Positions 12,513 through 48,036 of a stretch of DNA of 64,000 nt are shown in pieces; the stretch's first letter is position 1, and every line of letters begins with the position of its first letter. The position numbers and the translations under genes were made by a program. Source of the stretch: Candidatus Accumulibacter aalborgensis (GTDB lineage Bacteria > Pseudomonadota > Gammaproteobacteria > Burkholderiales > Rhodocyclaceae); NCBI RefSeq assembly GCF_900089955.1, contig NZ_FLQX01000107.1, positions 1 through 64,000 of the forward strand. The letters run 5' to 3'. The notes under the pieces were generated by a model. It was not told the origin of the DNA, made no database searches, and was given only the letters and a program-made list of their open reading frames with translations.

Positions 12513-14426
12513 CTATTGCCGCGGCTGAAAGGCCATCGAGCGCGCCGAGACGGTGAAGGCATCCGAGAAGCAGGCGCCGTCCTCAGCACCGTGCTGCTTG
12601 AGGAAGGGGAAGATCGCCTCGACCATGCGTACCGATCCGCAGGCGTAGATCTCGTGCTGCTTCAGTTCGGGAAAGTCCTCGATGATCGCCTCATGGACCA
12701 GGCCGGTGCGTCCGCTCCACTGGTCTTCGGGCGAGGGCTCGGAGAGGACGGGGATGAAGTGGAAGTTTTCGTGCTCGCTCGCCCAGCGTACCGGCAAGTC
12801 GGGCAGGTAGAGGTCCTTGAGCGCCTTTACTCCCCAGTAGAGATGGATCTCGCGCTTCAGCCCGCGCTTGAAGGCATCCTCGACCATGCTCTTGACCGGC
12901 GCGAAGCCGGTCGCGCCGGCGACGAAAACGATCGGTCGCTCCGACTCGCGCAGCGAGAAGTCGCCGATCGGGCCCTCGAAGTGGATTTCGTCGCCTTCCT
13001 TCATTTGCTCGAAAACGTGCGTCGTGAACCGGCCACTGGGCATCAGACGGATCTGCAGTTCGACGAACTCGGCTTCGTGCGGCGGATTGGCGAACGAGAA
13101 GGCGCGACGCTGTCCATCGTCGAGGATGATGTTGATGTACTGCCCGGCCTTGAAGCTTATCTGCTTCCCTGGCGGCAGCTTGAGCAGGACGCGCATGACG
13201 TCGTAGCTCAGTTTCTCCATGCTCACGACGCGGGCCGTGTACTCCTGGAAAACCCTGGCCAGCGCGCTTGCTTCATACTCGACGACGGCGTCTTCAAGAG
13301 CCGTGGCGCAGCACATCAGCACCTTGCCCTGGGCTAGTTCTTCGGCCGACAGCGCATTGGGCTGATACAGACCGGGATCGACCTTGCCCTGCAGGACCGT
13401 GCACTTGCAGACGCCACAGCCGCCGTTACGGCACTCGTAGGGCAGGTTGATCTCCTGCCGCAGGCCGGCGTCGAGCAGCGTTTCGTCAAACCTGGCGCTG
13501 ACCGAACGATGATCAGGGTGGAAGGTGATCGAGGTCAGCGCACTCGCTGAACCGCGTCTTTTTGGCGGCAGCCAGGGTAACAGGAAGAGCAGTGCGGTGA
13601 GACCGATGACCCAGTACCAGACATGCATCGGGTTGAGCACATAGACCAGCGCCAGGACTGGCAACTCGAACCAGTCGAACGCAATGTTGGTCGGCACGAC
13701 CGACATGTCGGCTTCACCGCCCTGGCTGAAAATCGGCTTGACCAGCGCCAGCACCAGAAACATCAGCGAAACCATGATGGCGATCGGGCGCGGCGGGTTG
13801 ATGTGCGCGCGCGGCACGCGCTGCACGTGCACCCACATGATGATCACCACGATCAGCGGGACGCCGATGTGGATGAACGCCAGCAGCGTGAAGAGACGGC
13901 TATTGACCGCTTCGAGAGTCAGGAAGTTGCGGATCAGCGTGCCGTTGAACATGGGCAGGATGTCGAACCACTCGGCGGTGGCGATGACGACGAATTGCGC
14001 CAGCTTGTCCCAGACGAGCATGAAGCCATTGACGCCGGCGACGTAGACCAGCCACAGCAGAGCGACGCCGGTCAGCCACGAGAAAGCGCGAAAACCGCGG
14101 TAACGATCGTAGGCAAAGTGCCGAACCATGTGCAGGAGCATGGTCAGGATCATGCCATCGGTTGCGTAACGGTGGACGCTGCGCAGGATGCCGCCGGCCC
14201 ACCACTGGTTGTGGGTGATCCGTTCGACCGAGCTGAAGGCGTCATGGACTCCGGTGTCGGCGAAGATGTAGAGGTAGAGGCCCGAGCCGACCAGCAACCA
14301 GAACTGCCAGAAACTGATCGTCCCCAGGTGGTAGAAGGGGTTCAGCTTGTCGCCGAAGGCGACGTTGAAAACGTTCTCGACGCGCATGAAGAGCCAGCGC
14401 AGGATTTGTTGCAGGAGTTTGACCAT
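12513..14426 (-). CDS. cytochrome b-[2Fe-2S] ferredoxin-FAD/NAD(P) reductase fusion
   Basis: The 637-residue fusion has three parts. Residues 1-285 are a cytochrome b/b6-like membrane module with two heme-ligand pairs spaced 14 apart (H85/H99, H186/H200). Residues 295-390 are a plant-type [2Fe-2S] ferredoxin with C332, C337, C340 and C372. Residues 395-625 are a ferredoxin-NADP reductase-like module: AFSFANPP for FAD, VAGATGFAP for NAD(P) and a closing CGSVRMVE. It should pass electrons between NAD(P)H and the quinone pool, in either direction. A protein of this architecture was, as I recall, noted in Accumulibacter and proposed to let the TCA cycle run anaerobically. It is the last gene of an operon behind an FNR-type box. 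Confidence 0.88.
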   Translation of the reverse strand: MVKLLQQILRWLFMRVENVFNVAFGDKLNPFYHLGTISFWQFWLLVGSGLYLYIFADTGVHDAFSSVERITHNQWWAGGILRSVHRYATDGMILTMLLHMVRHFAYDRYRGFRAFSWLTGVALLWLVYVAGVNGFMLVWDKLAQFVVIATAEWFDILPMFNGTLIRNFLTLEAVNSRLFTLLAFIHIGVPLIVVIIMWVHVQRVPRAHINPPRPIAIMVSLMFLVLALVKPIFSQGGEADMSVVPTNIAFDWFELPVLALVYVLNPMHVWYWVIGLTALLFLLPWLPPKRRGSASALTSITFHPDHRSVSARFDETLLDAGLRQEINLPYECRNGGCGVCKCTVLQGKVDPGLYQPNALSAEELAQGKVLMCCATALEDAVVEYEASALARVFQEYTARVVSMEKLSYDVMRVLLKLPPGKQISFKAGQYINIILDDGQRRAFSFANPPHEAEFVELQIRLMPSGRFTTHVFEQMKEGDEIHFEGPIGDFSLRESERPIVFVAGATGFAPVKSMVEDAFKRGLKREIHLYWGVKALKDLYLPDLPVRWASEHENFHFIPVLSEPSPEDQWSGRTGLVHEAIIEDFPELKQHEIYACGSVRMVEAIFPFLKQHGAEDGACFSDAFTVSARSMAFQPRQ

Positions 14427-14489
14427 GGTCGATGTCAGCTCAGGAAATGGGTGAGGCGTCAGTGCTTGATGTGCAAGTCGCGGTAGCGA

Positions 14490-14987
14490 TCACTTGAAGA
14501 ACAGGCCGCCGCGATCCGGGTTGAAGTCGATCACCATCACCTGCCCGGGGGCGAGGGTGATCTTCTCATCCTTGATGTAGTCGAAGCCGGGCTTCATGAG
14601 GTCGTCGTCCATCCTGACCGCCAGTTGGTGGCTGCCGGCCTTGACCTCGAAGCGCTTGTAGACCGTCGATACACCGTCTTTGTAGAGGCCGGTGGGGTGC
14701 ATCACGGCACGGAAAACCGGCTGGCCGTCGAGATCGACTTCAAGCCTGATGTCCGAGCGCTCGCGCGGGCAATCCATCGGCGCGCGCATGTTGGGCGGCA
14801 TTTTCGCCAATTCTTCAGGCGTTCGCTTGCGACACTCGCGGCCGCCGAGGTGACTGATCGAAAGCTTGATCAGTGCGACGTCGTCGGGAATCTGCTGGTA
14901 CTTCGGCGAGCTGGCAAAGGTGCCGATGAAAGCGGCGAAGGCGCCGTAAAGGATTACCTGGCCGACGAGGGCGGCGGGTTTAAGCAT
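14490..14987 (-). CDS. membrane-anchored extracytoplasmic protein of the cytochrome b operon
   Basis: The 165-residue protein has one N-terminal helix (AALVGQVILYGAFAAFIGTFA) and a soluble domain, probably periplasmic, rich in beta-type segments (DIRLEVDLDGQPVFRAVM). Start is the ATG at 14987, which overlaps the TAA of the upstream cytochrome b gene by eight bases, so the two are translationally coupled. Two or three Cys are present (GGRECRKR, APMDCPRE) but no CxxCH. No family is recognised. Position between two cytochrome b fusions suggests an accessory or assembly subunit of one complex. Confidence 0.7.
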   Translation of the reverse strand: MLKPAALVGQVILYGAFAAFIGTFASSPKYQQIPDDVALIKLSISHLGGRECRKRTPEELAKMPPNMRAPMDCPRERSDIRLEVDLDGQPVFRAVMHPTGLYKDGVSTVYKRFEVKAGSHQLAVRMDDDLMKPGFDYIKDEKITLAPGQVMVIDFNPDRGGLFFK

Positions 14988-16551
14988 GATGTGAAACTCT
15001 CCGCAGATAGGGTGGCAGTCTGTCACTTGCCGCCGGTTGGGATTCGAGTCGGGTTCTGAATTCGGCCAGAGCACTGGCCAGTGCTCTGCCGTCGTGCTGG
15101 GAAGCGGCGACCAGGTGCAGGCGCGATGCCGGCACGGTCCGGCGCAGATGCGGCTCGCGCTGGCCCAGCAGGCGTTCGCTCGTCCAGCGATCGCCGAGGC
15201 GGAAGTCGCAGCCGCCGCTGCGGCAGGTCGCCACCAGAACTCCGTCGGCACCGCTACGCAGCGCGTATTCGACAAAGGCCGGTGGCAACATGCCCGTGCA
15301 GATCAGCGGGATCACCGCCGTATCGCTGGCGGCAAGGTTGGCGGCATCAGCTCCGCGCGTGCAACCGAAGACGACGATGCGCGTGCGGCCATCGAGCCTG
15401 GCCAGGGCCGCTTCGAGTTCGTCGCGCAGCGCATTGACCGGCTGCTGCGGCATGTCTATGCCGGTGACCAGTGTCTCACGTCGGCGGAAGGGCGTCGACG
15501 ACGGGCACGAGCCGGCGCAGATGCCACAACTCGCGCAGAGGTCGGCATCGACCACGGCAAGCTTCAGACCCGGTCGGCGTGGATGCGGCACCATGGAAAT
15601 TGCGGCGTAGGGGCAGTCGGCCAGGCAGCGGTCGCAGCCGGTACAGTTGGCGGCGTCGACCACCGCCACCGGTTGCGGGCCAGGGTGAGGCAGCAGCGGC
15701 AGGGCGAAGAGCAGCGCCGTCACGCCGAACAGCAGTGACCAGACGATAGCCGGCGAGGTAGCGTCGGTCAGCGGATGGATGAACAGGATGAACCAGTCGA
15801 AATGGAGTGCGCCGGGAACCATCGCCAGATTGGCCGGTGGGTTGCTGAGCGCCGGTTTGATCAGGGCGAGGACGAGCAGTGCCGCCAGCGTTCCCAGCAT
15901 CACGCGCCGTGAAGGGAGATAATCGACATGCGCAATGCGCTGGACGTGCGCCCAGAGCGCCAGGATGAGCAGCAGCGGCAGGCCGATATGGATGAACACC
16001 AGCAGCGTGAAGAAGCGGTCGCTGATCGACTCCGGGGCCATGAAGTTGCGCGCTGAAGGTTGGCTGAAGATCGGCAGCCAGTCGAGCAGTTCGCTGGTCG
16101 CCGTAGCCGACAACTGTGCCAACTGGTCCCAGACGATCCAGTAGCCGCCGATGCCAGCCGCGTAGGCGAGCCAGATCAGTGGGATGCCGGTCATCCAGGA
16201 GTACAGGCGGAAGCCGTGATAGCGTCCATACGACCATTCGCGGATCAGGTGCAGCATCATGACCAGCATGAAACCGTCGGAAGCATAGCGATGCACGCTG
16301 CGCAGGACACCGCCGAGGTACCACTGCGCGAGCGAAAGATCGCCGATCGAGCTGTAAACGGCGTCGATGCCGGTATCGAGTACGGTGTACAGATAAAGTC
16401 CACTGGCGACGACGAGCCAGAGCAGATACATGCCAACGGCGCCGAGATGGCGCAACGGGTTGTCTTCGCCGCCGAACGGAGAATCGAGAGCTTCTTCGCT
16501 GCGCAAAAAGACGCTTTTCGCGCTCTTGCGCAAAGCGCTGTGGAAACTCAC
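14980..16551 (-). CDS. cytochrome b-two [4Fe-4S]-MvhD-like domain fusion
   Basis: The 523-residue protein probably starts at the GTG at 16551; an extension to 16869 would read into ispH DNA. Residues 25-290 form a cytochrome b/b6 module with H87/H101 and H188/H202, closely resembling the paralogue downstream. Two 4Fe-4S motifs follow (C303, C306, C309, C313 and C339, C342, C345, C349). Residues about 390-480 match the MvhD/FlpD delta domain of hydrogenase-heterodisulfide reductase complexes (C397, C418, ALRSGADGVLV, C443, C448). MvhD hands electrons to Hdr-type flavoproteins. Coupling it to a membrane cytochrome b suggests a quinone-linked electron entry or exit module. It leads the operon, behind an FNR-type promoter. 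Confidence 0.83.
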   Translation of the reverse strand: MSFHSALRKSAKSVFLRSEEALDSPFGGEDNPLRHLGAVGMYLLWLVVASGLYLYTVLDTGIDAVYSSIGDLSLAQWYLGGVLRSVHRYASDGFMLVMMLHLIREWSYGRYHGFRLYSWMTGIPLIWLAYAAGIGGYWIVWDQLAQLSATATSELLDWLPIFSQPSARNFMAPESISDRFFTLLVFIHIGLPLLLILALWAHVQRIAHVDYLPSRRVMLGTLAALLVLALIKPALSNPPANLAMVPGALHFDWFILFIHPLTDATSPAIVWSLLFGVTALLFALPLLPHPGPQPVAVVDAANCTGCDRCLADCPYAAISMVPHPRRPGLKLAVVDADLCASCGICAGSCPSSTPFRRRETLVTGIDMPQQPVNALRDELEAALARLDGRTRIVVFGCTRGADAANLAASDTAVIPLICTGMLPPAFVEYALRSGADGVLVATCRSGGCDFRLGDRWTSERLLGQREPHLRRTVPASRLHLVAASQHDGRALASALAEFRTRLESQPAASDRLPPYLRRVSHHA

Positions 16552-16596
16552 GGGGAGGCGTCCTGAGCCGTTGCCGGCAGTAATTATTAGCCATTG

Positions 16597-16638
16597 ATTA
16601 TATTGACAGCGGCGGCGAGGTGAATTGACGCGTGTCAA
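16597..16638 (-). promoter_or_regulatory. FNR-type class II promoter of the cytochrome b fusion operon
   Basis: TTGACGCGTGTCAA (16625-16638) is a perfect TTGAC-N4-GTCAA dyad, one base per arm from the FNR consensus TTGAT-N4-ATCAA. On the minus strand a perfect -10, TATAAT, lies at 16597-16602. The dyad centre is 32 bases from the -10 centre, the geometry of an FNR site centred at -41.5. The GTG start is about 40 bases beyond the inferred transcription start. Anaerobic or NO-responsive activation is predicted. Confidence 0.75.
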
Positions 16639-18107: not shown

Positions 18108-19157
18108 CTACCGTGCGCTCGCCCCGGAAACAAACAACGCTCCTTGACCCAGAGATTCATTCTTCGCTTTTGCTTTCTTCGCCGGGTCTAATGCGCAGAC
18201 CGTCTCACTGATGAAGTAATTGGCTTGGCTATTGTTCAACTTTTCTAATACTCGCTTCACGGTCTCAGGACTATGGCCCTCAAGGAAACGAAACGCGGAT
18301 GAAGCAAGATATTCCCGATTCATTTCAAAAGTTAGCCACTTACGCTTTAGCGCCTCGGAGGTAAATCCGGTGGTGTTTGATCCACCAAAAATATCCAGCA
18401 CGACATCTTCCTCGTCAGTCAGCATTTTTATAAAGAACGCAGGGAGTTCCGAGGGGAACCGCGCCGGATGGCGTTCAAGCCCGAGTTCCTTGCAGAACCG
18501 GAGATAGCTGGAGTTGCTATCGGTGTTCGGTATAGAAAGCAGGTTGGAAGGAATCGCCCCCCCATTATCCGTCCCAAACCCAGCACTTATGTCATGCCCT
18601 GACGGGCGTCTTTTTGGCGTATAGAAACTCTCTGGGTCCTCGATCAACTTTTTCATCCGATCGGAATACGGAGTCAGTACTTTCCGAACGTCGGCCTTCG
18701 GAAAGTCGGTCTTGCTAAACCACCACACAGTGTTGACGGAATCCTTTGCCCGAATTTTTCGTTTGTTTACCCATTCAATTGGCGACGGCAGCTTTGCCGG
18801 ATTGAACCAGTAGAAATCTTCAGCAAGGTGAAACCCGATCTCGTCGCAAAAAGCCAAGAGTACGCGGAAGTTATACAGCGAACGGGATGGAATTCCAGAG
18901 CGGTATGCCCCACCTAAGTCGAGAACAAAACTCCCGCTTTCCTTGAGAACTCGGAAGACCTCTTGCCCGAATGGCTTAATCCACTGGACGTACTCTGTTT
19001 CCGCAACATTGCCGTAGGTTTTTTGCCGCCGAAGTGCGAACGGCGGCGATGTCATAACCAGATCAATGCTGTTGTCGGGTAGTTCTGCGAGAAGCTCAAG
19101 AGAATCTCCAACATAGGCCTGACCACTGGAGGTATGGTAAAGCGGTTTGCTCTGCAT
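18108..19157 (-). CDS. site-specific DNA methyltransferase, beta class
   Basis: The 349-residue protein has motif IV TSPPF near residue 37 and motif I DIFGGSNTTG near 265, that is, catalytic motif before the SAM motif, the beta-class order. TSPPF is more typical of N4-cytosine than N6-adenine methylases. Target recognition would lie between (about 70-240). It follows the HEAT-repeat gene by one base (TGA-C-ATG), so the two are coupled. Codon and base use is visibly more AT-rich than the flanking fkpB and lspA, pointing to transfer. Modification of a defence pair is the likely role. Confidence 0.88.
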   Translation of the reverse strand: MQSKPLYHTSSGQAYVGDSLELLAELPDNSIDLVMTSPPFALRRQKTYGNVAETEYVQWIKPFGQEVFRVLKESGSFVLDLGGAYRSGIPSRSLYNFRVLLAFCDEIGFHLAEDFYWFNPAKLPSPIEWVNKRKIRAKDSVNTVWWFSKTDFPKADVRKVLTPYSDRMKKLIEDPESFYTPKRRPSGHDISAGFGTDNGGAIPSNLLSIPNTDSNSSYLRFCKELGLERHPARFPSELPAFFIKMLTDEEDVVLDIFGGSNTTGFTSEALKRKWLTFEMNREYLASSAFRFLEGHSPETVKRVLEKLNNSQANYFISETVCALDPAKKAKAKNESLGQGALFVSGASAR

Positions 19158-19158
19158 G

Positions 19159-20634
19159 TCAGTATTCCCTCAGGTCGTTGACCCAGCTTGCCACAATTTG
19201 CCACAACACGCTTGCGGCGAAATAGACTTCCGGGTCTGCCTTGCAGATGGCTTCAACATCGCCGTGAACAAACTTATCTTTGCCATAGCCGACGACGTAG
19301 CTAATCCACTTTCTCAGGTTCTCATCGGCCCCCACGACCATGTCTGACGGATTGAATTTGCCAGTTCGAGCAAGTACCCAGGATATACCGTCGCGCTTGG
19401 CGGTGTCACCGCTTTTTAGGAGATTGATCAGGTGAGGAATCTGTGGCTCAGCAATCCGCAACAGCGCGCGGGCTGCTTCAACCTTGATCTCCAAGGGACT
19501 TGAGTTGAATGTATCAACAAGTGCAGTCGCTGATGTAGCAGAAGCGAATTGGCCAAGTGCCCAAGCTGCTCCAGCCCGCAACTCGTCGTCACGTTGAGCG
19601 TCCCTCAAGACTTCGATCAGCAACTGTTCGCTCCGGCTCTTGGGTATTTCGGATGCGACAATGACTGTTTCAAGCTGCGTTTCAAGGGGAACCGTCATAA
19701 CCGGACTGCGTAGCTTGTTCTCCATGAACTCCCAGCCGTTCGGCTCGTCATATGCCGCAAGCGCTGCCGCAGCCTCAAGCTGGACATAAATATCCTCATC
19801 GGCATCGGTCATTCTCGATTCGAGCACTGGCTTGGCGGTTGTGTAGCCTCGATACCGCAACGCCTTTGCGGCCGCATATCGCTCGCTCAAGTTGACGCTT
19901 GCGAGCTTGTCTATGAAGTAGCCTTCGCCAACTGACGTGGGGCATTGGAGCTTTGTGTTGACCGAAACAACTGACGCAACAATCTGATTGGCCTCGACGA
20001 TATCGCCAGCGTTGACCTGGGGTAGCAAGGTGATCTTGCCTTTGCTCCGGCTCAACTGGATCGATTGTCGCCGTGCCTCCGGGATAGGAGTCAGGCTGAT
20101 CCTCCCGTATTCCACAGAGAAAACAACTGATCGCTGGTTGGCAGCAGCGCATGTCCACATCACCCGTATTTCGGAGCCTTCCTCGACCCCTTTTGGCTGC
20201 GTGATGGATACCTGTCCGGCGGCAAACGCCTTCCGCATGTCCTTCACGCTTATGAGGTGGACAGGCGAGATTTGTTTCAAATCTATGGGAGAATCATTGT
20301 TTTGCTCGAATACGACGATTGAAACAAGGTCGTCGTCCCGCATACCAGCGTCCCAAGCCCGCTTCGGGTCATTGAGGGAATGGGACATTGATATTTCAAG
20401 TTTTGTTTTGCCGCGGGATTCAAACCGGATGCCTGTGTTCAAACACAGAATGTCAGGAACCCGCACACGCTTGATTTTTATCTTCTTCCAGATTTTGAAG
20501 CCTGTGGAACCACGCTCAAGCTCTATCGGATTGAATCCCATCGCTTTCAGTCGGTTGATCGTTGCATTCGTGCCTGCGGCGCCAACAGCAAGTTTTCTCA
20601 GAAAACTGTCGTCACTCTTGAAATTATTTGCCAT
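19159..20634 (-). CDS. putative nuclease-like protein with C-terminal HEAT repeats, R-M partner
   Basis: The 491-residue protein starts at MANNFKSDD. Residues about 45-115 resemble a PD-(D/E)xK-type nuclease core: VPDILCL (D61), FESRGKTKLEISM (E72, K76/K78, E80), then a helix and DDDLVSIVVFE. A middle domain of unknown fold follows (120-250). Residues about 265-470 are HEAT-like helical repeats (ERYAAAKALRYRG, DIYVQLEAAAALAAY, DELRAGAAWALGQF, IKVEAARALLRIA). Immediate coupling to a DNA methylase makes it the likely restriction partner, but the nuclease call is inference from residue spacing. No REBASE-type family is recognised by me. Confidence 0.6.
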   Translation of the reverse strand: MANNFKSDDSFLRKLAVGAAGTNATINRLKAMGFNPIELERGSTGFKIWKKIKIKRVRVPDILCLNTGIRFESRGKTKLEISMSHSLNDPKRAWDAGMRDDDLVSIVVFEQNNDSPIDLKQISPVHLISVKDMRKAFAAGQVSITQPKGVEEGSEIRVMWTCAAANQRSVVFSVEYGRISLTPIPEARRQSIQLSRSKGKITLLPQVNAGDIVEANQIVASVVSVNTKLQCPTSVGEGYFIDKLASVNLSERYAAAKALRYRGYTTAKPVLESRMTDADEDIYVQLEAAAALAAYDEPNGWEFMENKLRSPVMTVPLETQLETVIVASEIPKSRSEQLLIEVLRDAQRDDELRAGAAWALGQFASATSATALVDTFNSSPLEIKVEAARALLRIAEPQIPHLINLLKSGDTAKRDGISWVLARTGKFNPSDMVVGADENLRKWISYVVGYGKDKFVHGDVEAICKADPEVYFAASVLWQIVASWVNDLREY

Positions 20635-20795
20635 CGCGCCACCCGAAGAAGCTCTCAATGGTGTTCGGTGACGTCATAACGGGTGGTAACGGTTTTGCCC
20701 ATCGTGGCTACTCCGAAAGACTACGCGCGAGACGCAAGGCAATATTGATGTCCTTGGCATTTATCGAGTGTCTGATTACGCTGCTCTGACCAGAC

Positions 20796-27667: not shown

Positions 27668-27883
27668 ATGATGGAAACGTTGTATCTGCTGATTCCGATC
27701 TCCGTGGTGCTGGTCTTCCTGATCGGCATCGCCTTCTGGTGGTCACTGCGCAACGGTCAATTCGACGATCTGGAAGGGCCGGCCTACCGCATCCTCATGG
27801 ACGACGACAGCCCGCCACCGAAAGCGGTGGCGGGCGAGGTTCCGCCCGCTCCAACGGTCAGGCCTTTTCAAGATCATTGTTGA
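27668..27883 (+). CDS. ccoS: cbb3-type oxidase assembly protein CcoS
   Basis: The 71-residue protein starts three bases after ccoI. One helix (LLIPISVVLVFLIGIAFWWSL) is followed by the CcoS motif NGQFDDLEGPAYRILMDDD. CcoS is needed for cofactor insertion into cbb3 oxidase. The tail after residue 47 is encoded by a perfect ten-base hairpin (27811-27834), an apparent repeat-derived extension. Confidence 0.9.
   Translation: MMETLYLLIPISVVLVFLIGIAFWWSLRNGQFDDLEGPAYRILMDDDSPPPKAVAGEVPPAPTVRPFQDHC
27811..27834. repeat. perfect hairpin inside ccoS coding sequence
   Basis: CCCGCCACCG, loop AAAG, CGGTGGCGGG: ten perfect base pairs. It encodes Pro-rich residues of the non-conserved CcoS tail. It has no trailing T run, so is not a terminator. 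Confidence 0.5.
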
Positions 27884-27991
27884 CCGAGGTCAAGACGTCG
27901 ATCCGGCGGGCCGGGATAATGTCTCTCTATGGGGTGGACGCTTCGGCAGTGCGTGCCTGGGGTGTTCAGGGAGGTTTCTCTGTTGGGGTTC

Positions 27992-28018
27992 GGGTGCGTT
28001 TCGACGCACCCTTTTTTT
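27992..28018 (+). terminator. intrinsic terminator after ccoIS
   Basis: GGGTGCGT, loop TTCG, ACGCACCC, then TTTTTTT. It separates ccoIS from the ccoNOQP operon, which has its own FNR-type promoter 35 bases further on. Confidence 0.88.
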
Positions 28019-28052
28019 GTCTGCGAGCAGGCGTCTGTTGCCGCCGGAGAGC

Positions 28053-28066
28053 TTGATCTGTGTCAA
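28053..28066 (+). promoter_or_regulatory. FNR/ANR-type box upstream of ccoNOQP
   Basis: TTGATCTGTGTCAA matches TTGAT-N4-ATCAA at nine of ten positions. A -10-like TAGCAT lies at 28089-28094, with centre 32 bases from the box centre, the class II FNR spacing. Oxygen-controlled activation of cbb3 oxidase by FNR/ANR is established in many proteobacteria. Confidence 0.75.
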
Positions 28067-28170
28067 ATGAGCGCCCATCGGGGTAGAATAGCATCCGCAA
28101 AATCAGTGCTCAGCATAAGGGCATTCAGGGCGGTGAAAGCCGGTTATTTGGTCAACAAAGAGGTGAGTCC

Positions 28171-29598
28171 ATGTCGGAAACTCAGTCAACATACAACTAC
28201 AAGGTGGTGCGGCAGTTTGCCGTGATGACCGTCATCTGGGGGATTGTCGGAATGCTGGTCGGCGTGATCATTGCCGCCCAGATGGTCTGGCCGGAACTGA
28301 ACATGGGCTGGCTGCATTTCGGCCGATTGCGTCCGCTCCATACCAATGCGGTCATTTTCGCCTTCGGCGGTTGCGCCCTCTTCGCCACCTCCTATTACGT
28401 CGTGCAACGTACCTGCCATACGCGAATCTTCTCCGACGGTCTGGCCGCCTTCACCTTCTGGGGCTGGCAACTGGTGATCGTTCTGGCGGCGATCACCCTG
28501 CCGCTGGGTATCACTCAGGGCAAGGAATATGCCGAACTCGAATGGCCGATCGACATTCTGATCACCGTGGTCTGGGTGGCCTACGCAATCGTCTTCTTCG
28601 GCACCATCGCCAAGCGCAAGGTCACGCACATTTACGTGGCCAACTGGTTCTATGGCGGCTACATTCTTGCCGTTGCGCTGCTGCACGTGGTCAACAGCGC
28701 CGCCATCCCGGTTTCGCTGACCAAGTCCTACTCGGCCTATGCTGGTGTGCAGGACGCGATGGTGCAGTGGTGGTACGGCCACAACGCGGTCGGCTTCTTC
28801 CTCACCGCGGGCTTTCTCGGCATGATGTACTACTTCGTACCGAAGCAGGCCGGTCGCCCGGTCTATTCGTACCGGCTGTCCGTGGTGCACTTCTGGGCGC
28901 TGATCTTTACCTACATGTGGGCCGGTCCGCACCACCTGCACTATACCGCGCTGCCCGACTGGACGCAGTCGGTGGGCATGCTGTTCTCGCTGATCCTGCT
29001 GGCGCCTTCGTGGGGCGGCATGATCAACGGCGTGATGACGCTGTCGGGCGCATGGCACAAGCTGCGTGACGACCCGATCCTCAAGTTCCTGATCACCTCG
29101 CTGTCGTTCTATGGCATGTCGACCTTCGAAGGCCCGATGATGGCCATCAAGACGGTCAATGCTCTGTCGCATTACACCGACTGGACGATCGGACACGTAC
29201 ACTCCGGTGCGCTGGGTTGGGTGGCGATGATTTCCATCGGCTCGATCTACTACCTGTTGCCGCGTCTGTTCGCCAAGCCCGAAATGTTCAGCGTCAAATT
29301 GATCACCGTGCATTTCTGGGTGGCCACGATCGGCGTTGTGCTCTACATCGCGTCGATGTGGATTGCCGGGGTCATGCAGGGCCTGATGTGGCGGGCAGTG
29401 AATGCTGACGGTACGCTGACCTACAGCTTTGTCGAATCGGTCAAGGCCTCGTATCCCTTCTGGGCGATCCGTTTCCTGGGTGGCTGCCTCTTCCTGAGCG
29501 GCATGCTGATCATGGCCTACAACATGGTCAAGACGATTGCCGGTGGCCGGGCGGTTGATGACGCGCTGGTCTTGCAACCGGCGGCTAACCACGCCTGA
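28171..29598 (+). CDS. ccoN: cbb3-type cytochrome c oxidase subunit I
   Basis: The 475-residue catalytic subunit of the high-affinity terminal oxidase contains about twelve helices, low-spin heme b and the heme b3-CuB site. Ligand motifs are [12 protein letters not shown], the [17 protein letters not shown] helix (CuB His), [13 protein letters not shown] (two CuB His) and [15 protein letters not shown]. In cbb3 enzymes the active-site Tyr is on helix VII; a Tyr is present (HYTALPDW, and the Ser/Tyr-rich helix next to it). Oxygen is reduced at nanomolar levels. Confidence 0.96.
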
Positions 29599-29611
29599 GG
29601 AGGGGAATGAA

Positions 29612-30226
29612 ATGAAACTTACGCATGACGCAATTGAACGTAATGTCGGTTTGATGGTTGTCCTGACTCTGCTGGTGGTCAGCGTCGGCGGCCTGGTCGA
29701 AATCGTACCGCTGTACTTCCAGAAATCGACCACCGAACCGGTGACCGGACTCAAGCCCTATGACCCGGTCCGCCTGACGGGGCGTGACGTGTACATTCGC
29801 GAAGGCTGCTACCTGTGTCACTCGCAGATGATCCGTCCATTCCGTGCCGAGACCGAGCGCTATGGGCATTATTCGGTCGCCGGCGAGTTCGTCTATGACC
29901 ATCCGTTCCAATGGGGTTCCAAGCGCACCGGGCCGGACCTGCACCGTGTCGGTGGGCGCTACTCGGACGAATGGCACCGTGCTCACCTGATCAATCCGCG
30001 TGATCTGGTTCCCGAGTCGAACATGCCAGCGTTCGCTTTTCTCGAGAAGGCGCCCGCTGATGCGAGCAGCATAGAGGCCAAGATGCGCGCGCTGCGCAAG
30101 GTCGGTGTCCCCTATACCGATGAAGAAATCGCCGGCGCCAGGAAGCAGCTTGAGGGCAAGAGCGAGCTCGACGCCCTGATCGCCTACCTGCAGGGGATGG
30201 GCCTCGAATTGAAGAACGCGAAATAA
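29612..30226 (+). CDS. ccoO: cbb3-type oxidase subunit II, monoheme cytochrome c
   Basis: The 204-residue protein starts at [11 protein letters not shown] with AGGAGGGG upstream. One N-terminal anchor ([22 protein letters not shown]), heme c motif GCYLCHSQ and Met ligand in ESNMPAFAF. It passes electrons from CcoP to CcoN. The [22 protein letters not shown] block is characteristic of CcoO. Confidence 0.95.
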
Positions 30227-30230
30227 GCGC

Positions 30231-30425
30231 ATGGACATCAACGATCTGCGGGCCATCGTCACGGTGGTCTCCTTCCTGACTTTCCTCGGGATCGTCTGGT
30301 GGGCTTACGGCGTGAAGGCCAACAAGAAGCGCTTCGAAGAAGCGGCCATGCTGCCCTTCGCAGATGAAGAAGCGGAGCGGGCCGAACTCGGCCTGGATCG
30401 CAACCGGGAAAGGAAAGCATCATGA
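30231..30425 (+). CDS. ccoQ: cbb3-type oxidase subunit CcoQ
   Basis: The 64-residue single-helix protein (VTVVSFLTFLGIVWWAYG) ends in a charged tail FADEEAE. CcoQ stabilises the cbb3 complex. It starts four bases after ccoO and overlaps ccoP by four (ATGA). Confidence 0.9.
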   Translation: MDINDLRAIVTVVSFLTFLGIVWWAYGVKANKKRFEEAAMLPFADEEAERAELGLDRNRERKAS

Positions 30426-42277: not shown

Positions 42278-43159
42278 TCAAGGCGCCTTCGACTCACTCC
42301 GGCGGCGATTCTTCCAGAAATTGATCGACAGGTAGATCATGAAGCCGACGAAGGTGAGAAAGCCGGCAATCTGGAAATACAGCGAGTAGTTGGTCCGGTA
42401 GCGGCCGGTGACGGGGTCGTAGATCGAGCAGATGATCCTGACCCGTTCCATGATCTCTTTGAGAGTACCGACCTCGGCCGGGATCGCCGAGCCGGTGATC
42501 AGCCCCTTGAGCGGCTCGGCGAGGTCTTCGGCGGTGAACTTTTCGCCATAAACCTGGCGCACGATGCGTCCTTCGGCGTCGACCATCGTCACCTGGTTGA
42601 GGTGGTCGAAGCCAGCCGGGGTGGCGACAAAGCTGAAACCGAAATTTCGCGTCAGGTCACCGACGATCGCCGGGGCCGGGCTCAGAAATTCCCAGTTGGG
42701 CAGGTGAATGCCGTACTGTTTGGCGAAGTCCCTGAGCGCTGCCGGCGAGTCGAAAGGCTGGTTGAAGCCGATGCTGATGACGTTGAAACGCTCCGCGCCA
42801 ATCATGCCGACGGTATTCTGGACGGCTTTCTGCAAGTTGCGCGTGGTCGTCGGGCAGACCTGAAAACAGGCGGTGTAGATGAAGCTGACCAGCAATGGCT
42901 TGCCGCGGTAACGCGCCAGGTCGACCGGCCGTCCCTCGCGGTCGAGCAGGACGAAGTCGCCCACCGGCTTGCCGATCGCGCTTTGGGACAACGTGAAAGC
43001 CGCTTTTTCGTCGAGGGCAGTGAGTGCCAGGCCGCTGTTGATTCCCTGCGGGCGGGCCGTGAGCCTGGGTTTGTCAGTAGGGACCTCGTCGGCCAGAACC
43101 GGATTGACCGCCAGAAAGGCTAGCGATGCGAAGAGTGCGCGGAAAGATCGACCGATCAC
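42278..43159 (-). CDS. SCO1/SenC family copper-assembly protein
   Basis: The 293-residue protein has a signal segment (1-23), a thioredoxin-like domain with Cu-binding CFQVC (about 101-105) and a distant His in AGFDHLNQV, and unusually a C-terminal membrane helix (FQIAGFLTFVGFMIYLSINFW). SCO proteins metallate CuA of subunit II. It follows ctaB in the atypical heme-copper oxidoreductase operon, whose subunit II has a CuA site. Confidence 0.9.
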   Translation of the reverse strand: MIGRSFRALFASLAFLAVNPVLADEVPTDKPRLTARPQGINSGLALTALDEKAAFTLSQSAIGKPVGDFVLLDREGRPVDLARYRGKPLLVSFIYTACFQVCPTTTRNLQKAVQNTVGMIGAERFNVISIGFNQPFDSPAALRDFAKQYGIHLPNWEFLSPAPAIVGDLTRNFGFSFVATPAGFDHLNQVTMVDAEGRIVRQVYGEKFTAEDLAEPLKGLITGSAIPAEVGTLKEIMERVRIICSIYDPVTGRYRTNYSLYFQIAGFLTFVGFMIYLSINFWKNRRRSESKAP

Positions 43160-43179: not shown

Positions 43180-44076
43180 TCAGAACGCGAATTGTCGGTC
43201 CACGATGGCGGCCAGCAGCACCAGAGTCAACTGGATCAGCGAGGCATGAAAACAGACCATCGCCGATTTGCGGTTGGGGTCACGCGTCAGTCGCCAGGCT
43301 TTCTGGATGAAGAGGAAGCCGCCGAGGGCAGCGCCGGCGAAGTAGATCGCACCAAGCCCGAAGGCCAGCGGCAGGAGCGACGCGGCGACCAGTGCCAGGG
43401 TGCTGAAAAAAATCGTGTCCGCTGCCCGCTGATCACCGACGACGACCGGCAGCATCGGCACGCCGGCCGCTTCGTAGTCGGCGCGGAAAGCGATCGCCAG
43501 ACTCCAGAAGTGCGGTGGCGTCCACAGAAAGAGCACCAGCGCCAGCGCCAGCGGTACGCCGCCAGGTTGCGGGTCGGCGGCGGTGGCTCCGGCCAGCACC
43601 GCCCAACTGCCGGCCAGGCCGCCGAAAACGATGTTCAGCCAGGTCCGCCGCTTCAGCCATACGGTGTAGACGATGGCATAGAAGAAAGCGCCGAGAAAGA
43701 CGAACAGCGCCGACCACGCGTTGAGTGCCAGCCACGCACTGCCGACTGACAGCGCCATCAGTGCGCAGATGACCAGCAGCCAGATGGGTCCGTGCCGCAG
43801 TTCGCCGGTGACGAAAGGGCGCTTGCTGGTGCGCGCCATCAGGTGGTCGGTGTCGTGCTCGTAATACTGGTTGAAGGCGCCGGCGCTGGCCGAAGAGACC
43901 AGTACCGACAGGGTCAGCACCAGCAGTTGCAGCAGGCTCAGGCCAGGCCCCGGGCTGACCGCCAGTCCGGCCAGCGCGGTAAAGGTGATGACGACGCCAA
44001 TGCGCAGCTTGAAGACGCCCAGAATGGCACGGAAGGGGAAACCGGGGGTGCTGTTCGATGGGAGTGTGGATTGCAT
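43180..44076 (-). CDS. ctaB: protoheme IX farnesyltransferase (heme O synthase)
   Basis: The 298-residue UbiA-type enzyme adds a farnesyl group to heme b. Motifs NQYYEHDTDHLMARTSKRP (the NxxxDxxxD-like prenyl diphosphate site) and the later DYEAAGVPMLP are present, with nine helices. With CtaA across the divergent promoter it would supply heme O/A to the adjoining oxidoreductase; cbb3 oxidase needs neither. Confidence 0.94.
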   Translation of the reverse strand: MQSTLPSNSTPGFPFRAILGVFKLRIGVVITFTALAGLAVSPGPGLSLLQLLVLTLSVLVSSASAGAFNQYYEHDTDHLMARTSKRPFVTGELRHGPIWLLVICALMALSVGSAWLALNAWSALFVFLGAFFYAIVYTVWLKRRTWLNIVFGGLAGSWAVLAGATAADPQPGGVPLALALVLFLWTPPHFWSLAIAFRADYEAAGVPMLPVVVGDQRAADTIFFSTLALVAASLLPLAFGLGAIYFAGAALGGFLFIQKAWRLTRDPNRKSAMVCFHASLIQLTLVLLAAIVDRQFAF

Positions 44077-44233: not shown

Positions 44234-45928
44234 TCAGCTCAGCAGCCAGACCTCGGACAGGTACTTCCAGTTGACGAAGTAGTATAGAACGAAGCAGACG
44301 AAGAGCAACAGCGCCAGGACGACGGTGCCGGGAACGCCGACGTGGTCGCTGCCGTGCGCGACCGCCGACGCGGCCTGGGTGTTGGCCGGGATCGGCGTCG
44401 GCTGGTTGGAGACCTTGCCGCCGTCAAGCTTCTTGCCGAACAGCAGCGAACCGACGACGAGCAGGATCCATAATCCGCCGCCAATCACGGCAATGACGCC
44501 AAAGATCCCGGTCAGGCCCATCATCAGGTAGGCGGCACCCGGCCATTCATACTGGAACGGTGCGCCGGAGAAGGCCATGTCCCAGTGCCGGCGGGAGACG
44601 CCCAGCGTGCCGGCACCCATCATCACCAGGCCGAGAACCGACATGCTGATGCCGAACAGGTAGGGCTGGATCTGGCACAGTTTCGGCAGGATCATTTCGC
44701 GCCGGAAGAGGACCGGGACCAGCAGGTAGGTGATCGACATGAAGGCCAGAGTCGTTCCGGTCACCACCGTGGTGTGGAAGTGGCCGGGGACATAGAAGGT
44801 GTTGTGCATCAGCATGTTGATCTGCTCGGTACCGAGCACGACACCCGAGATGCCGCCGAGGAAGCCGAAGCTGACCAGCGAGATGAACATTCCGGAGAAC
44901 ACCGGGTTGCCCCAGGGCGCCTTGCGCAGCCATTCGAAGAGGCCGTTGGTGTAGCCCTTGCGCCGCTGCGCCGCTTCGATCGCGCCGGGAACCGTAAAGC
45001 CGTGGATCATCGAGGCCATGACCGCAAAATACATGAAGTAGGAAGTGTTGAGTACCTTCCACTCGGAACTCATTCCGGGGTCGGAGAGCAGGTGGTGCGC
45101 ACTGGCAAGTTGCAGGAACAGGATGTAGAGCAGGAAAGCTCCGCGCGACACTTTCTCGGACAGCGGCTTGGCGCCGAAAATCACGGCCGCGGTCAGATAC
45201 CAGATGGAGACGTGTGCCGCCACGTTGATCTGCTGCGACGAGTGCCCCAGGCCCCACCACACCATGCGGTACAACTGCGCGTCGATTTCCTTGATCAGGC
45301 CGATCGACCAGAGAAAGGTCGGGATCAGGATGCCTGCGCCGGCGAGGATGGTGAAGGTGGCGATGATCGCCGCCGTCAAAGCGCCGAAAGTGACCAGCGG
45401 CAGCGAGCCCTGATAGGTCTTGTCCTTCTTGGCAACGACCAGCGTGCCAAAGAAAACGGCCGTACCGAGCAGCGCACCGACGGCGACCAGGATGATCCCC
45501 AGGTAGAAGTGCGGCGCTGCCTGCATCGGCACGTAGGAAGTGAACATCACGCTCGATTCGCCCTGGAAGATGGCGATATTGGTCGTGATGCCGCCGACGA
45601 CCATCAGCCAGAAACCAAGCCAGGCGATCTTTGGCGTCGCCAATCGGCAGCGGAGCAGCGTCGATGAGGCGAAGTAGAGGACGGCCATCTCGAAGAACAG
45701 GATCCACAGGATCAGCATGTCGACGCCGTGGGCGGTGAGAATCAGGTAGAACTGGTCGGCCGGCAGCAGCTTGATCGCCGGCCAGCGCGTGAGGATGACC
45801 AGCAGCGCGGTGATGCCGCCGACGAGCAGCCAGAGGACGCCGGCGACAGCGTTCCAGCGCATCAGCTTTTCGGCCTGGTCCTCGAATTGCAGTCCGGAGA
45901 CGGGACAGGTACGGTAGGTCGTTGCCAT
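44234..45928 (-). CDS. B-type-like heme-copper oxidoreductase subunit I lacking the active-site Tyr
   Basis: The 564-residue membrane protein keeps all six metal-ligand histidines: H67 (TAHGVDM, low-spin heme), H229 (GLGHSSQQ, CuB), H278/H279 (ASAHHLL, CuB), H383 and H385 (VPGHFHTT), with H375 also conserved. In oxygen reductases of types A and B helix VI reads HPEVY or HPxVY; here it is H229-S-S-Q-Q233, so the His-linked Tyr is Gln. No Tyr follows within that turn. Enzymes without this Tyr are usually nitric oxide reductases, though cNOR/qNOR use Glu there. The gene lies with CuA subunit II, a IIa-like peptide, ctaB and sco, downstream of an FNR/DNR-type box. Oxygen versus NO reduction is unresolved; NO is the better guess. 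Confidence 0.8.
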   Translation of the reverse strand: MATTYRTCPVSGLQFEDQAEKLMRWNAVAGVLWLLVGGITALLVILTRWPAIKLLPADQFYLILTAHGVDMLILWILFFEMAVLYFASSTLLRCRLATPKIAWLGFWLMVVGGITTNIAIFQGESSVMFTSYVPMQAAPHFYLGIILVAVGALLGTAVFFGTLVVAKKDKTYQGSLPLVTFGALTAAIIATFTILAGAGILIPTFLWSIGLIKEIDAQLYRMVWWGLGHSSQQINVAAHVSIWYLTAAVIFGAKPLSEKVSRGAFLLYILFLQLASAHHLLSDPGMSSEWKVLNTSYFMYFAVMASMIHGFTVPGAIEAAQRRKGYTNGLFEWLRKAPWGNPVFSGMFISLVSFGFLGGISGVVLGTEQINMLMHNTFYVPGHFHTTVVTGTTLAFMSITYLLVPVLFRREMILPKLCQIQPYLFGISMSVLGLVMMGAGTLGVSRRHWDMAFSGAPFQYEWPGAAYLMMGLTGIFGVIAVIGGGLWILLVVGSLLFGKKLDGGKVSNQPTPIPANTQAASAVAHGSDHVGVPGTVVLALLLFVCFVLYYFVNWKYLSEVWLLS

Positions 45929-45942
45929 CTATTGATTCCCCC

Positions 45943-46482
45943 TTATTTCACGTAGATACGGCCAAGCATCGAGGAGTGGCCGATGCCGCAGTACTCGTTG
46001 CAGACGATGGCATAAGTGCCTTCCTTGGTCGGCGTCATCTTGACCACATGCTCATAGCCGGGGAGCACTTCGATGTTGATGTTCACCGGCTGCAGCGAGA
46101 AGCCGTGCGCGTAATCCATCGACGAGAGGTGGATCTTGTAGGTCTGACCCTTTTCCAGTTCCAGAATCGGATACCAGGCCCACAGGCGGGCGATCAGGTA
46201 GCCATCGCCGCCGGCCGGCACCTTGACCACCGGGATGTTCTGATCGGTCTCGGTACGGATGGTGTTCTCGGCAATGAACTTTTCGGCTTTGGCGCCGAAC
46301 AGCTCGGGGGTCGTTTTGTAAGCCTCATTCGACAGGTTCTGTTTCCCGTAGACGTGCCAGTAGATCATCATCGCGAACATGATCATCCCCCAGACGAAGG
46401 CGATCGCGATCCACGCCCACTCGACCTTGTCGATCGGTTGCTTCCACCAGAGCCGATCCGACGGCGGCAGAATTGCACTCAT
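45943..46482 (-). CDS. heme-copper oxidoreductase subunit II with CuA site
   Basis: The 179-residue protein has one N-terminal helix (WAWIAIAFVWGMIMFAMMIYW) and a cupredoxin domain with an intact CuA set: His in DYAHGFSLQ, then CNEYCGIGHSSM (C-x3-C-x3-H-x2-M). A CuA site implies electrons from cytochrome c or a similar periplasmic donor. Single-helix anchoring is the B-type (ba3-like) form. The gene ends 14 bases before subunit I. Confidence 0.92.
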   Translation of the reverse strand: MSAILPPSDRLWWKQPIDKVEWAWIAIAFVWGMIMFAMMIYWHVYGKQNLSNEAYKTTPELFGAKAEKFIAENTIRTETDQNIPVVKVPAGGDGYLIARLWAWYPILELEKGQTYKIHLSSMDYAHGFSLQPVNINIEVLPGYEHVVKMTPTKEGTYAIVCNEYCGIGHSSMLGRIYVK

Positions 46483-46787: not shown

Positions 46788-46830
46788 AGAATACCTGCAG
46801 TTGGCGGGTTCTTGATTTGATGCACGTCAA
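46788..46830 (-). promoter_or_regulatory. FNR/DNR-type promoter of the atypical oxidoreductase operon
   Basis: TTGATGCACGTCAA (46817-46830) matches TTGAT-N4-ATCAA at nine of ten positions. On the minus strand a -10-like TATTCT lies at 46788-46793, 33 bases centre to centre, close to class II geometry. No comparable -10 is placed for the divergent ctaA, so the box should serve the oxidoreductase. FNR, ANR and the NO sensor DNR share this consensus. Confidence 0.72.
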
Positions 46831-46986: not shown

Positions 46987-48036
46987 ATGGATAAAATCGC
47001 TCGTCGACAAATCGCTGTCTGGCTGCTCGTCTGCAGCGCCATGGTCCTGGCCATCCTGGTCGTCGGTGGCGTCACCCGCCTGACCCATTCCGGCCTGTCG
47101 ATCGTCGAGTGGCGACCGATCGTCGGCATCATTCCGCCGCTCGATCAGCGTGAGTGGGATGAAACCTTCGCCAAGTACAAGGAAACGCCCGAGTACCGGC
47201 AGGTGAACCAGCGGATGACGCTCGATGAGTTCAAGGGCATTTTCTTCTGGGAGTACTGGCACCGCGTCCTCGGGCGGCTGATCGGCGCCGTTTTCCTGCT
47301 GCCCTTCGTCTATTTCTGGCTGCGCGGCAAGATCGATCGGCCCTTGCTGCCCAGGTTGCTGGCGATCTTCGTCCTCGGCGGTCTGCAGGGGGCGATGGGC
47401 TGGTACATGGTCAAGAGCGGGCTGGTCGATGATCCGCGCGTCAGTCACTATCGCCTGACCGCGCATCTGTCGCTGGCTTTCCTGATCTTCGTCTCGATGT
47501 TCTGGCTGGCGCTGGGGCTGCTCGCCGAGCGCTCTCGGGCAAGGAGCGACGACCCGCTGCGGGGAGTGCAGCGCACGGGTTTCTGGCTGTCGATCCTGGT
47601 CGCCTACATGGTCGTCAGCGGCGGCTTGGTCGCCGGCATCCGGGCCGGCAAGGCCTACAACAGTTTTCCCTTGATGAACGGTCACCTCCTGCCCCCGGAG
47701 AGTTTTGTCATTGATCCATGGTACCTCAATTTCTTCAACAACATGGCGCTGGTCCAGTTTGATCACCGCCTGGGCGCCTGGCTGCTGGCTTTTCTGGTTC
47801 CCTGGCTGTGGTGGCAGACGCGGTCGGCAGCGATTTCCGTACCGGCGCGTCGGGCCGCCACGCTGCTCCTGTTGGTGCTCTTCGTCCAGATCCTGCTCGG
47901 CATTGCCACGCTGCTGCTCGCAGTTCCGGTTGGGCTGGGCGCCGCGCATCAGGGTGGCGCGATGGTCGTTCTCGGCGTGCTGTTGTGGTTGAATCACGAA
48001 CTCCGGGTCGAGCGTACGCCGGGTCATGCCACTTGA
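46987..48036 (+). CDS. ctaA: heme A synthase, COX15/CtaA family
   Basis: The 349-residue membrane protein starts at MDKIARRQIAVWL. It has eight helices in two pseudo-repeats with paired heme His (EYWHRVLGR, YRLTAHLSL; QFDHRLGAW, AAHQGGAMV) and the VTRLTHSGLSIVEWRPI segment of the type 2 (mitochondrial-like) CtaA. It oxidises heme O to heme A. It is divergent from the oxidoreductase operon. A second CtaA-like gene overlaps its stop. Confidence 0.93.
   Translation: MDKIARRQIAVWLLVCSAMVLAILVVGGVTRLTHSGLSIVEWRPIVGIIPPLDQREWDETFAKYKETPEYRQVNQRMTLDEFKGIFFWEYWHRVLGRLIGAVFLLPFVYFWLRGKIDRPLLPRLLAIFVLGGLQGAMGWYMVKSGLVDDPRVSHYRLTAHLSLAFLIFVSMFWLALGLLAERSRARSDDPLRGVQRTGFWLSILVAYMVVSGGLVAGIRAGKAYNSFPLMNGHLLPPESFVIDPWYLNFFNNMALVQFDHRLGAWLLAFLVPWLWWQTRSAAISVPARRAATLLLLVLFVQILLGIATLLLAVPVGLGAAHQGGAMVVLGVLLWLNHELRVERTPGHAT

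What the first reader, a model, noticed from the sequence alone, without database searches (positions are those of the whole stretch)
12513..16638. Operon of two cytochrome b fusions joined to different electron modules
One cytochrome b carries two 4Fe-4S motifs and an MvhD-like delta domain; its paralogue carries a 2Fe-2S ferredoxin and an FAD/NAD(P) reductase; a small anchored protein lies between. The cytochrome b modules share both heme pairs with identical 14-residue spacing, implying duplication followed by domain capture. Together they look like a membrane complex linking NAD(P)H, an Hdr-type or ferredoxin pool and quinone. The second fusion was, to my memory, noted in Accumulibacter; the MvhD partner and FNR control look under-described.
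Basis: partly seen in the sequence, partly recalled or inferred. Interest (0 to 1): 0.82.

Follow-up and report, generated by a model that had tools for sequence, protein, structure and literature searches.

The report
Cytochrome b partners of NO reductase
Two unusual membrane cytochromes in a wastewater bacterium turn out to be inherited almost always together with a little-known enzyme, easily mistaken for an oxygen-using oxidase, that probably destroys nitric oxide, so they are most likely the wiring that feeds that enzyme with electrons.

Summary
Three minus-strand genes (16551-12513) encode a cytochrome b-2x[4Fe-4S]-FlpD fusion (P0001), a one-helix protein (P0002) and a cytochrome b-[2Fe-2S]-FAD-NAD fusion (P0003), below a conserved FNR-type site. 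Subunit I has Gln where oxidases have the active-site Tyr, the published mark of eNOR nitric oxide reductases. Fusion and eNOR occur together in 38 of 199 family genomes (each in 40), 33 of 369 class genomes (each in 34) and 29 of 388 phylum genomes (34 and 30). The cytoplasmic module varies (FlpD, Fd-FAD-NAD, diflavin, none); a six-helix cytochrome b with a Qo-like Asp-Trp motif stays, with P0002 beside or fused to it. Best reading: eNOR's dedicated bc1-like quinol-oxidising partner, also wired to cytoplasmic NAD(P)H and Fe-S carriers. In this genome, NirS-like genes are present and eNOR is the only heme-copper NO-reductase candidate above Pfam's cut-off. The eNOR link is strong; complex formation, direction of flow and bifurcation are inferred. 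No paper found in the held library describes it; the key eNOR paper was not held.

The parts
14980..16551 (-). P0001: cytochrome b (15676-16551), two [4Fe-4S] motifs (about 15487-15666), FlpD/MvhD-like domain (about 15037-15384), 523 aa, GTG start (start codon is an inference from the alignment)
   Evidence: 4 His and 12 Cys in 37 of 37 rows
14490..14987 (-). P0002: one predicted N-terminal membrane helix and a domain taken to be periplasmic, 165 aa, no known family; start overlaps the end of P0001
   Evidence: Cys53 and Cys74 in 37 of 37 rows; one relative has it fused to P0001
12513..14426 (-). P0003: cytochrome b (13551-14426), plant-type [2Fe-2S] (about 13275-13529), FAD and NAD(P) reductase (about 12546-13250), 637 aa
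16625..16638 (.). FNR/CRP-family type palindrome TTGACgcgtGTCAA, 74-87 bp before the P0001 start
   Evidence: conserved in 26 of 26 near loci
45943..46482 (-). CuA (cupredoxin) subunit II of the eNOR-type reductase, 179 aa
   Evidence: homologues hit COX2; H126, C161, E163, C165, H169, M172 in 36 of 36 rows
44234..45928 (-). eNOR-type heme-copper subunit I, 564 aa, helix VI motif G-H-S-S-Q-Q (Gln at the position of the oxidase Tyr)
   Evidence: Gln233 in 36 of 36 rows
43180..44076 (-). CyoE-like heme o synthase (UbiA family)
   Evidence: a homologue hits UbiA
42278..43159 (-). SCO-like copper-insertion protein with a C-terminal membrane helix
   Evidence: homologues hit SCO1-SenC
46817..46830 (.). 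FNR-type palindrome TTGATgcacGTCAA between the CuA gene and the divergent ctaA-like gene
   Evidence: also upstream of CuA in 4 of 4 contiguous Accumulibacter clusters checked and in 17 of 35 deeper loci within 450 bp
46987..48036 (+). CtaA-like heme A synthase (name recalled from sequence; homologues lie at the same place in related clusters)

Best explanation
The operon encodes the electron-delivery half of an eNOR-type nitric oxide reductase system. Shown by sequence: a six-helix, di-heme, bc1-like cytochrome b with a Qo-like Asp-Trp motif is kept together with P0002 and with the eNOR genes (CuA subunit, subunit I, CyoE, SCO), while the domain fused behind its last helix is exchangeable (2x[4Fe-4S]-FlpD, [2Fe-2S]-FAD-NAD, flavodoxin/FAD/NADP diflavin, or nothing). 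Inferred: the cytochrome b oxidises quinol on the periplasmic side and passes electrons, directly or through P0002, to CuA of eNOR, which reduces NO to N2O; the second electron goes through hemes bL and bH, and the fused cytoplasmic modules exchange it with NAD(P)(H) and a soluble low-potential carrier. In Accumulibacter the P0001-type and P0003-type subunits would form a hetero-dimer in place of the cytochrome b homodimer of complex III. In the window's genome the same system has been split by about 28 kb, both parts under FNR-type sites, and eNOR is its only heme-copper NO-reductase candidate beside NirS-like proteins.
For: Co-occurrence in three genome samples. Family: eNOR in 40 and full fusion in 40 of 199, both in 38 (Fisher p 6e-36). 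Class: 34 and 34 of 369, both in 33. Phylum: 30 and 34 of 388, both in 29; p 8e-45 and 2e-37 (genomes are related, so these p-values overstate independence, and the window's own genome is in each sample). Proximity: same strand, gap under 5 kb, in 37 of 39, 26 of 32 and 13 of 28 such genomes. Order CuA-HCO-(CyoE)-SCO-P0001-P0002: HCO upstream on the same strand within 6 kb in 33 of 33 loci that hold both. Four Accumulibacter genomes have all seven genes contiguous. eNOR mark: Gln in place of Tyr and a cupredoxin subunit next to it, per PMC8756737 (passages); window motif GHSSQQ against GHPEVY in its own aa3 oxidase, Gln in 36 of 36. Module exchange: tree; diflavin fusion in L089 and P0001-P0002 fusion in L102; stand-alone cytochrome b with P0002 and no cytoplasmic module in G017/L076. 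Structure: model of P0001 (pLDDT 87.4, pTM 0.85) matches complex III cytochrome b over residues 15-291 (Z 17.8-21.8 in the 50 rows) and MvhD 5odc_D (target TM 0.65). Qo position: D252-W253 (37 of 37) aligns with the V-W of the PVWY motif of the genome's own bc1 cytochrome b. Own genome: three heme-copper oxidases above cut-off, aa3, cbb3 and eNOR, and NirS-like hits.
Against: No biochemistry. eNOR identity rests on one diagnostic residue, the CuA subunit and similarity. The cytochrome b-bH to CuA path needs P0002 or direct contact, and P0002 has no recognised redox cofactor (two invariant Cys only). Exceptions: G014 (fusion cut by a contig end) and G017 (no fusion) have eNOR without full fusion; G077, G114, G413, G671, G687, G695, G775, G825 have the fusion without an eNOR hit (five are 69-82% complete, G077 is 85%, G114 94%, G695 96% with 730 contigs). 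G462 and G624 have eNOR without fusion, their contigs ending just after eNOR and SCO. In the phylum sample 12 of 28 pairs lie on different contigs and in 3 the genes are on opposite strands. Camejo et al. place the 'ba3' oxidase, which I take to be this enzyme, among genes lower when FNR is active in UW-LDO-IC, with small changes, though in UW-1 it was high anaerobically (passages). The Qo alignment is weak on its own: that stretch scored i-Evalue 8 against 8smr_I.
Confidence: 0.68

Rival explanations
1. NAD(P)H-oxidising transmembrane reductase: electrons enter from NAD(P)H (P0003, or diflavin in others) and from a soluble carrier at FlpD (P0001), cross the membrane through the two hemes and reduce CuA/eNOR or quinone, as in NOX-type or ferric reductases.
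For: P0003's reductase half is closest to BenC/AntC/MmoC-type reductases and the independent diflavin fusion in L089 is of a type that, to my knowledge, normally oxidises NADPH.
Against: G017 keeps the cytochrome b and P0002 with eNOR but has no cytoplasmic module, and 32 of 34 class genomes had no intact P0003-type fusion at E <= 1e-60, so NAD(P)H input is not the core role. Outward electron flow would also cost membrane potential (established energetics; inference).
Confidence: 0.17
2. Quinol-to-NAD(P)+ device for anaerobic redox balance in polyphosphate accumulators (the older proposal for the NAD fusion), independent of NO.
For: FNR-type site; the older proposal is alluded to in PMC2289847 (one passage).
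Against: The genes travel with eNOR through families that are not polyphosphate accumulators as far as the samples span, and the NAD fusion is absent from most of them. Uphill quinol-to-NAD transfer needs a driving reaction that this reading does not supply.
Confidence: 0.08
3. The heme-copper enzyme is an oxygen reductase of unusual active site, and the cytochrome b complex is its quinol donor; NO is irrelevant.
For: Databases and annotators label such genes as cbb3-type or cytochrome oxidases; Camejo et al. list a 'ba3' oxidase in all Accumulibacter genomes, which I infer is this gene because the window's genome has only aa3, cbb3 and this one above cut-off.
Against: The oxidase cross-linking Tyr is Gln in 36 of 36 rows, which PMC8756737 gives as the eNOR mark.
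Confidence: 0.07

Closest known systems
Cytochrome bc1 / b6f complex (complex III)
   Same: Di-heme cytochrome b fold, helices A-F, both His pairs, Qo-like motif position.
   Different: Chain continues after helix F into a cytoplasmic redox module; helices G and H are replaced; I saw no Rieske or c1/f gene in the annotated Defluviimonas cluster, and did not search for one elsewhere; ligand spacing is 14 in both helices.
eNOR nitric oxide reductase (Hemp and Gennis; Murali et al., recalled; PMC8756737 passages)
   Same: Subunit I with Gln at the Tyr position and a CuA subunit II.
   Different: Published accounts that I could see describe two subunits; none mentions a cytochrome b partner. The 2024 PNAS paper on eNOR was not held.
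MvhD/FlpD and HdrA2 of methanogens
   Same: P0001's cytoplasmic half resembles the ferredoxin plus MvhD end of HdrA2 (NF040770, 1.1e-22, over residues 295-504) and MvhD 5odc_D in fold.
   Different: Fused to a membrane cytochrome b; no other FlpD protein in this genome.
BenC/AntC/NqrF-type NAD(P)H reductases
   Same: [2Fe-2S]-FAD-NAD half of P0003.
   Different: Carried behind a six-helix cytochrome b.
ORF RME88945.1 in Table A3 of PMC8756737
   Same: One ORF listed with a C1 cytochrome c domain, cytochrome b6, an Fe-S domain (DMSOR_beta-like) and FlpD (passages).
   Different: Listed without comment, with a cytochrome c domain; not connected there to eNOR in the passages I saw.

Membership tests
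eNOR-type NO reductase (44234-46482) | Gln in place of the active-site Tyr in subunit I | tested here: met
   GHSSQQ in window, GHPEVY in own aa3; Gln233 in 36 of 36 rows; criterion from PMC8756737
eNOR-type NO reductase (44234-46482) | Cupredoxin (CuA) subunit II next to subunit I | tested here: met
   ligand residues in 36 of 36 rows
eNOR-type NO reductase (44234-46482) | NO reductase activity; proton channel | not testable with these tools
   no assay; channel residues were not examined
bc1-type cytochrome b (P0001, P0003) | Two bis-His hemes in helices B and D | tested here: met
   four His in 37 of 37 P0001 rows and in 19 of 19 P0003 rows
bc1-type cytochrome b (P0001, P0003) | PEWY-like Qo motif | tested here: inconclusive
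   x-D-W-F/Y at the aligned place; DW in 37 of 37, aligned with PVWY of 8smr_I and of own bc1; the third aromatic varies in 8 of 37
bc1/b6f complex as a whole | Rieske protein and cytochrome c1 or f in the same operon | tested here: inconclusive
   none annotated in the Defluviimonas cluster; other loci were searched only for the cluster's own genes
FlpD/MvhD (C-terminal part of P0001) | FlpD model above curated cut-off; four Cys ligands of a [2Fe-2S] cluster | tested here: met
   51.4 bits against 22.3; C397, C418, C443, C448 in 37 of 37
Hdr/Mvh system | Hdr partner subunits | tested here: inconclusive
   no other FlpD in own genome; HdrA was not searched there; HdrA2-like FlpD proteins exist in G010 and G069
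Ferredoxin-NAD(P)H reductase (C-terminal part of P0003) | Fer2, FAD_binding_6, NAD_binding_1 domains | tested here: met

The most novel reading that the evidence does not exclude
A Rieske-free, quinone-based electron bifurcator: quinol is split at the Qo-like site of the P0001/P0003 cytochrome b hetero-dimer, one electron falling to NO through P0002 and the CuA of eNOR, the other driven through hemes bL and bH into a fused cytoplasmic module that reduces NAD(P)+ or a ferredoxin-like carrier. NO respiration would then pay directly for low-potential reductant, and the swappable cytoplasmic module sets which carrier is made.
Probability: 0.22. Interest if true: 0.92.

Novelty: new variant of a known kind. 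Interest (0 to 1): 0.76.

Why it matters
It gives eNOR, a little-studied NO reductase with a proposed proton channel, a conserved membrane partner, and so a testable answer to where its electrons come from. It offers an explanation for a stated puzzle: Camejo et al. found that few Accumulibacter genomes carry norZ and none norBC although they carry nirS (PMC6446978, passages); the enzyme listed there as 'ba3 oxidase' is probably eNOR (inference). That bears on N2O release from wastewater treatment. Natural replacement of the cytoplasmic module behind one cytochrome b is also a useful test bed for how complex III-type proteins exchange electrons with soluble carriers.

Tried and rejected
Selenocysteine: in-frame TGA flagged in several P0001 homologues proved to be the ordinary C-terminal stop in the five loci translated (L104-L107, L119).

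An oxidase lost from Accumulibacter: rejected, the homologue lies in the same window.

Assembly artefact for the diflavin fusion in L089: the two cytochrome b parts are identical over 269 aa but differ at DNA level (97.6% over 954 bp, 9 mismatches, 10 gap openings), so I read a recent duplication or gene conversion; it remains one case in one genome.

Structure of P0003: the model was poor (pLDDT 69.8, pTM 0.41) and is not used beyond its helix list. No complex could be modelled. My first ORF calls on high-GC loci took wrong frames and were replaced by homology-based calls.

Papers: ten-term searches gave nothing on the cytochrome b-FlpD fusion with eNOR and no paper with both Accumulibacter and eNOR. 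Only the library of open-licence PMC papers was searched. Seen as passages only: PMC2289847, PMC8756737, PMC10734462, PMC12569097, PMC6446978. Garcia Martin et al. 2006, Hemp and Gennis 2008 and Murali et al. 2024 are recalled.
Full report
What is there. The window comes from an Accumulibacter-type genome of 4.7 Mb in 181 contigs; the closest named relatives of P0001 outside it are Candidatus Accumulibacter genomes at 77-84% identity, with four loci from other Betaproteobacteria or unassigned proteobacteria at 70-72%. The three genes of the finding are present as described. P0001 is a cytochrome b with 12 cysteines in three clusters' worth of positions behind it; P0003 a cytochrome b with a plant-type [2Fe-2S] domain and a BenC-like FAD/NAD reductase. 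P0002 has one N-terminal hydrophobic helix and two cysteines that are kept in 37 of 37 rows. Its start overlaps the end of P0001 in 32 of 35 deeper loci.

The link to eNOR. A plasmid of Defluviimonas, found by protein search, has a P0001 homologue (46% identity) directly behind genes for a heme-copper subunit I, CyoE and SCO. Deeper Rhodocyclaceae show the same. A search of the window's own genome with such a subunit I hit the window itself at 44237-45925, 72% identical, preceded by a CuA subunit and followed by CyoE and SCO. The subunit carries G-H-S-S-Q-Q where the genome's own aa3 oxidase carries G-H-P-E-V-Y. Gln at the place of the oxidase Tyr is the published mark of eNOR, and a cupredoxin subunit is its partner (PMC8756737, passages). 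All seven active-site and heme residues checked, Gln included, are the same in 36 of 36 rows.

Co-occurrence. In 199 family genomes eNOR is found in 40 at E <= 1e-60 and cytochrome b hits in 43 at E <= 1e-40. Counting only hits that reach into FlpD gives 40, of which 38 have eNOR; G077 and G114 have the fusion near a contig end and no eNOR, G014's fusion is cut by a contig end, and G017 has none. In 369 class genomes the numbers are 34, 34 and 33 together, in 388 phylum genomes 30, 34 and 29 together. Misses: G413 (77% complete) and G462 in the class; G624, G671, G687, G695, G775 and G825 in the phylum. The contigs of G462 and G624 end right after eNOR and SCO. Fisher p-values are far below chance, though genomes are related. 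Same strand and gap under 5 kb: 37 of 39 family, 26 of 32 class and 13 of 28 phylum genomes with both, own genome counted in the family only; 12 of the 28 phylum pairs are on different contigs. Four genomes of the window's genus have the seven genes in one run. In the window the halves are 27.7 kb apart, and in its close relative G158 on different contigs.

The constant and the variable part. Of 41 deeper loci, 36 have a separate P0002, 25 a second COX1-like gene, 15 a P0003 and 9 a hemerythrin gene of the Defluviimonas type (several loci are cut by contig ends). Among 34 class genomes with fusion or eNOR, a full P0003 was found in G280 and a two-contig one in G540. The tree of 69 cytochrome b rows makes the NAD type one clade (99/99), placed among FlpD types with moderate support (the bc1 outgroup has a very long branch, so the root is unsure). 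G354 has, beside its FlpD copy, a cytochrome b identical over 269 aa that is fused to what reads as a CysJ-like diflavin reductase (the reductase was named from its sequence, not by a family search). Four phylum genomes of one family carry two FlpD-type copies; in three of them, looked at in detail, the copies are in tandem. G355 has P0001 and P0002 as one 682-aa protein. G017 has the eNOR genes, P0002 and a stand-alone cytochrome b that stops right after helix F. So the cytochrome b core is what eNOR keeps, P0002 stays with it, and the cytoplasmic module is exchangeable. That argues that quinol, the one donor left to G017's protein, is the core substrate; it is a single case.

Structure and sites. 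The P0001 model is good (pLDDT 87.4, pTM 0.85). Residues 15-291 match complex III cytochrome b and the FlpD part matches MvhD. Helices A to F are present; the chain leaves the membrane after F, on the cytoplasmic side if the topology is that of complex III. Between helices E and F lies D252-W253, in 37 of 37 rows, aligned with V-W of the PVWY motif in the genome's own bc1; the same alignment against 8smr_I is weak by itself.

Regulation. A FNR-type palindrome precedes P0001 in 26 of 26 near loci and 12 of 36 deeper loci, where P0001 is mostly internal to the cluster, and CuA in 17 of 35 deeper loci and 4 of 4 contiguous Accumulibacter clusters within 450 bp; shuffled upstream regions gave 0.2%. 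FNR, DNR and NnrR sites cannot be told apart this way. Camejo et al. predicted an FNR regulon that includes 'ba3' (PMC6446978, passages). Their data are mixed for my reading: in UW-LDO-IC 'ba3' changed little and fell in a cluster lower under FNR activity; in UW-1 it was high in the anaerobic stage and fell on aeration.

Function. In the window's genome the heme-copper family has three members above cut-off, aa3, cbb3 and eNOR, and one below it, a relative of the second COX1-like gene (48% identity). Three cytochrome d1 hits of 345 bits or more include a NirS-like protein. NO made by NirS therefore has eNOR as its one heme-copper reductase candidate here. I conclude that the operon is eNOR's electron partner (0.68); that quinol is the main donor is inferred; that the cytoplasmic modules receive the second electron (bifurcation) is a bold reading at 0.22; NAD(P)H input is the main rival.

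What is known. No paper found in the held library joins these cytochromes to eNOR. Table A3 of PMC8756737 lists one ORF with a cytochrome c domain, cytochrome b6, an Fe-S domain and FlpD, without comment in the passages I saw. The main eNOR paper was not held, so a description of this cluster there cannot be excluded.

Noticed in passing
L072:2623-4032 (-) and relatives; own genome G000:C95:97294-98463: A second COX1-like protein of about 470 aa with conserved H-V-D-L-S and G-G-G-H-x-L-Q motifs sits in 25 of 41 related eNOR clusters; function unknown, perhaps a NO- or O2-binding relative of subunit I. The own genome has a 48% identical copy on another contig.
   Followed up: partly
window 27880-31327: ccoN and following cbb3 oxidase genes with two FNR-type palindromes at 27880 and 28053.
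   Followed up: no
window 18108-20658: A DNA methyltransferase-like gene (TSPPF motif, read by eye) and a 499-aa neighbour, perhaps a restriction-modification pair, between the FkpB/IspH-like genes and the signal-peptidase-like gene (names recalled).
   Followed up: no
window 49344-52025: An 893-aa protein with an ATPase-like GVGKS motif and no obvious place in the neighbouring heme genes.
   Followed up: no
L013:8157-10158: P0003 homologue of Ca. Accumulibacter appositus matches in several pieces in different frames, as a broken or badly assembled gene would.
   Followed up: no
L108, L109, L110: Genomes of one family carry two tandem FlpD-type cytochrome b genes; in L108 they lie next to an eNOR only 50% identical to the window's.
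   Followed up: partly
L061:14113-14517: A hemerythrin-family gene follows P0001 and P0002 in the Defluviimonas cluster; homologues in 9 of 41 loci.
   Followed up: no
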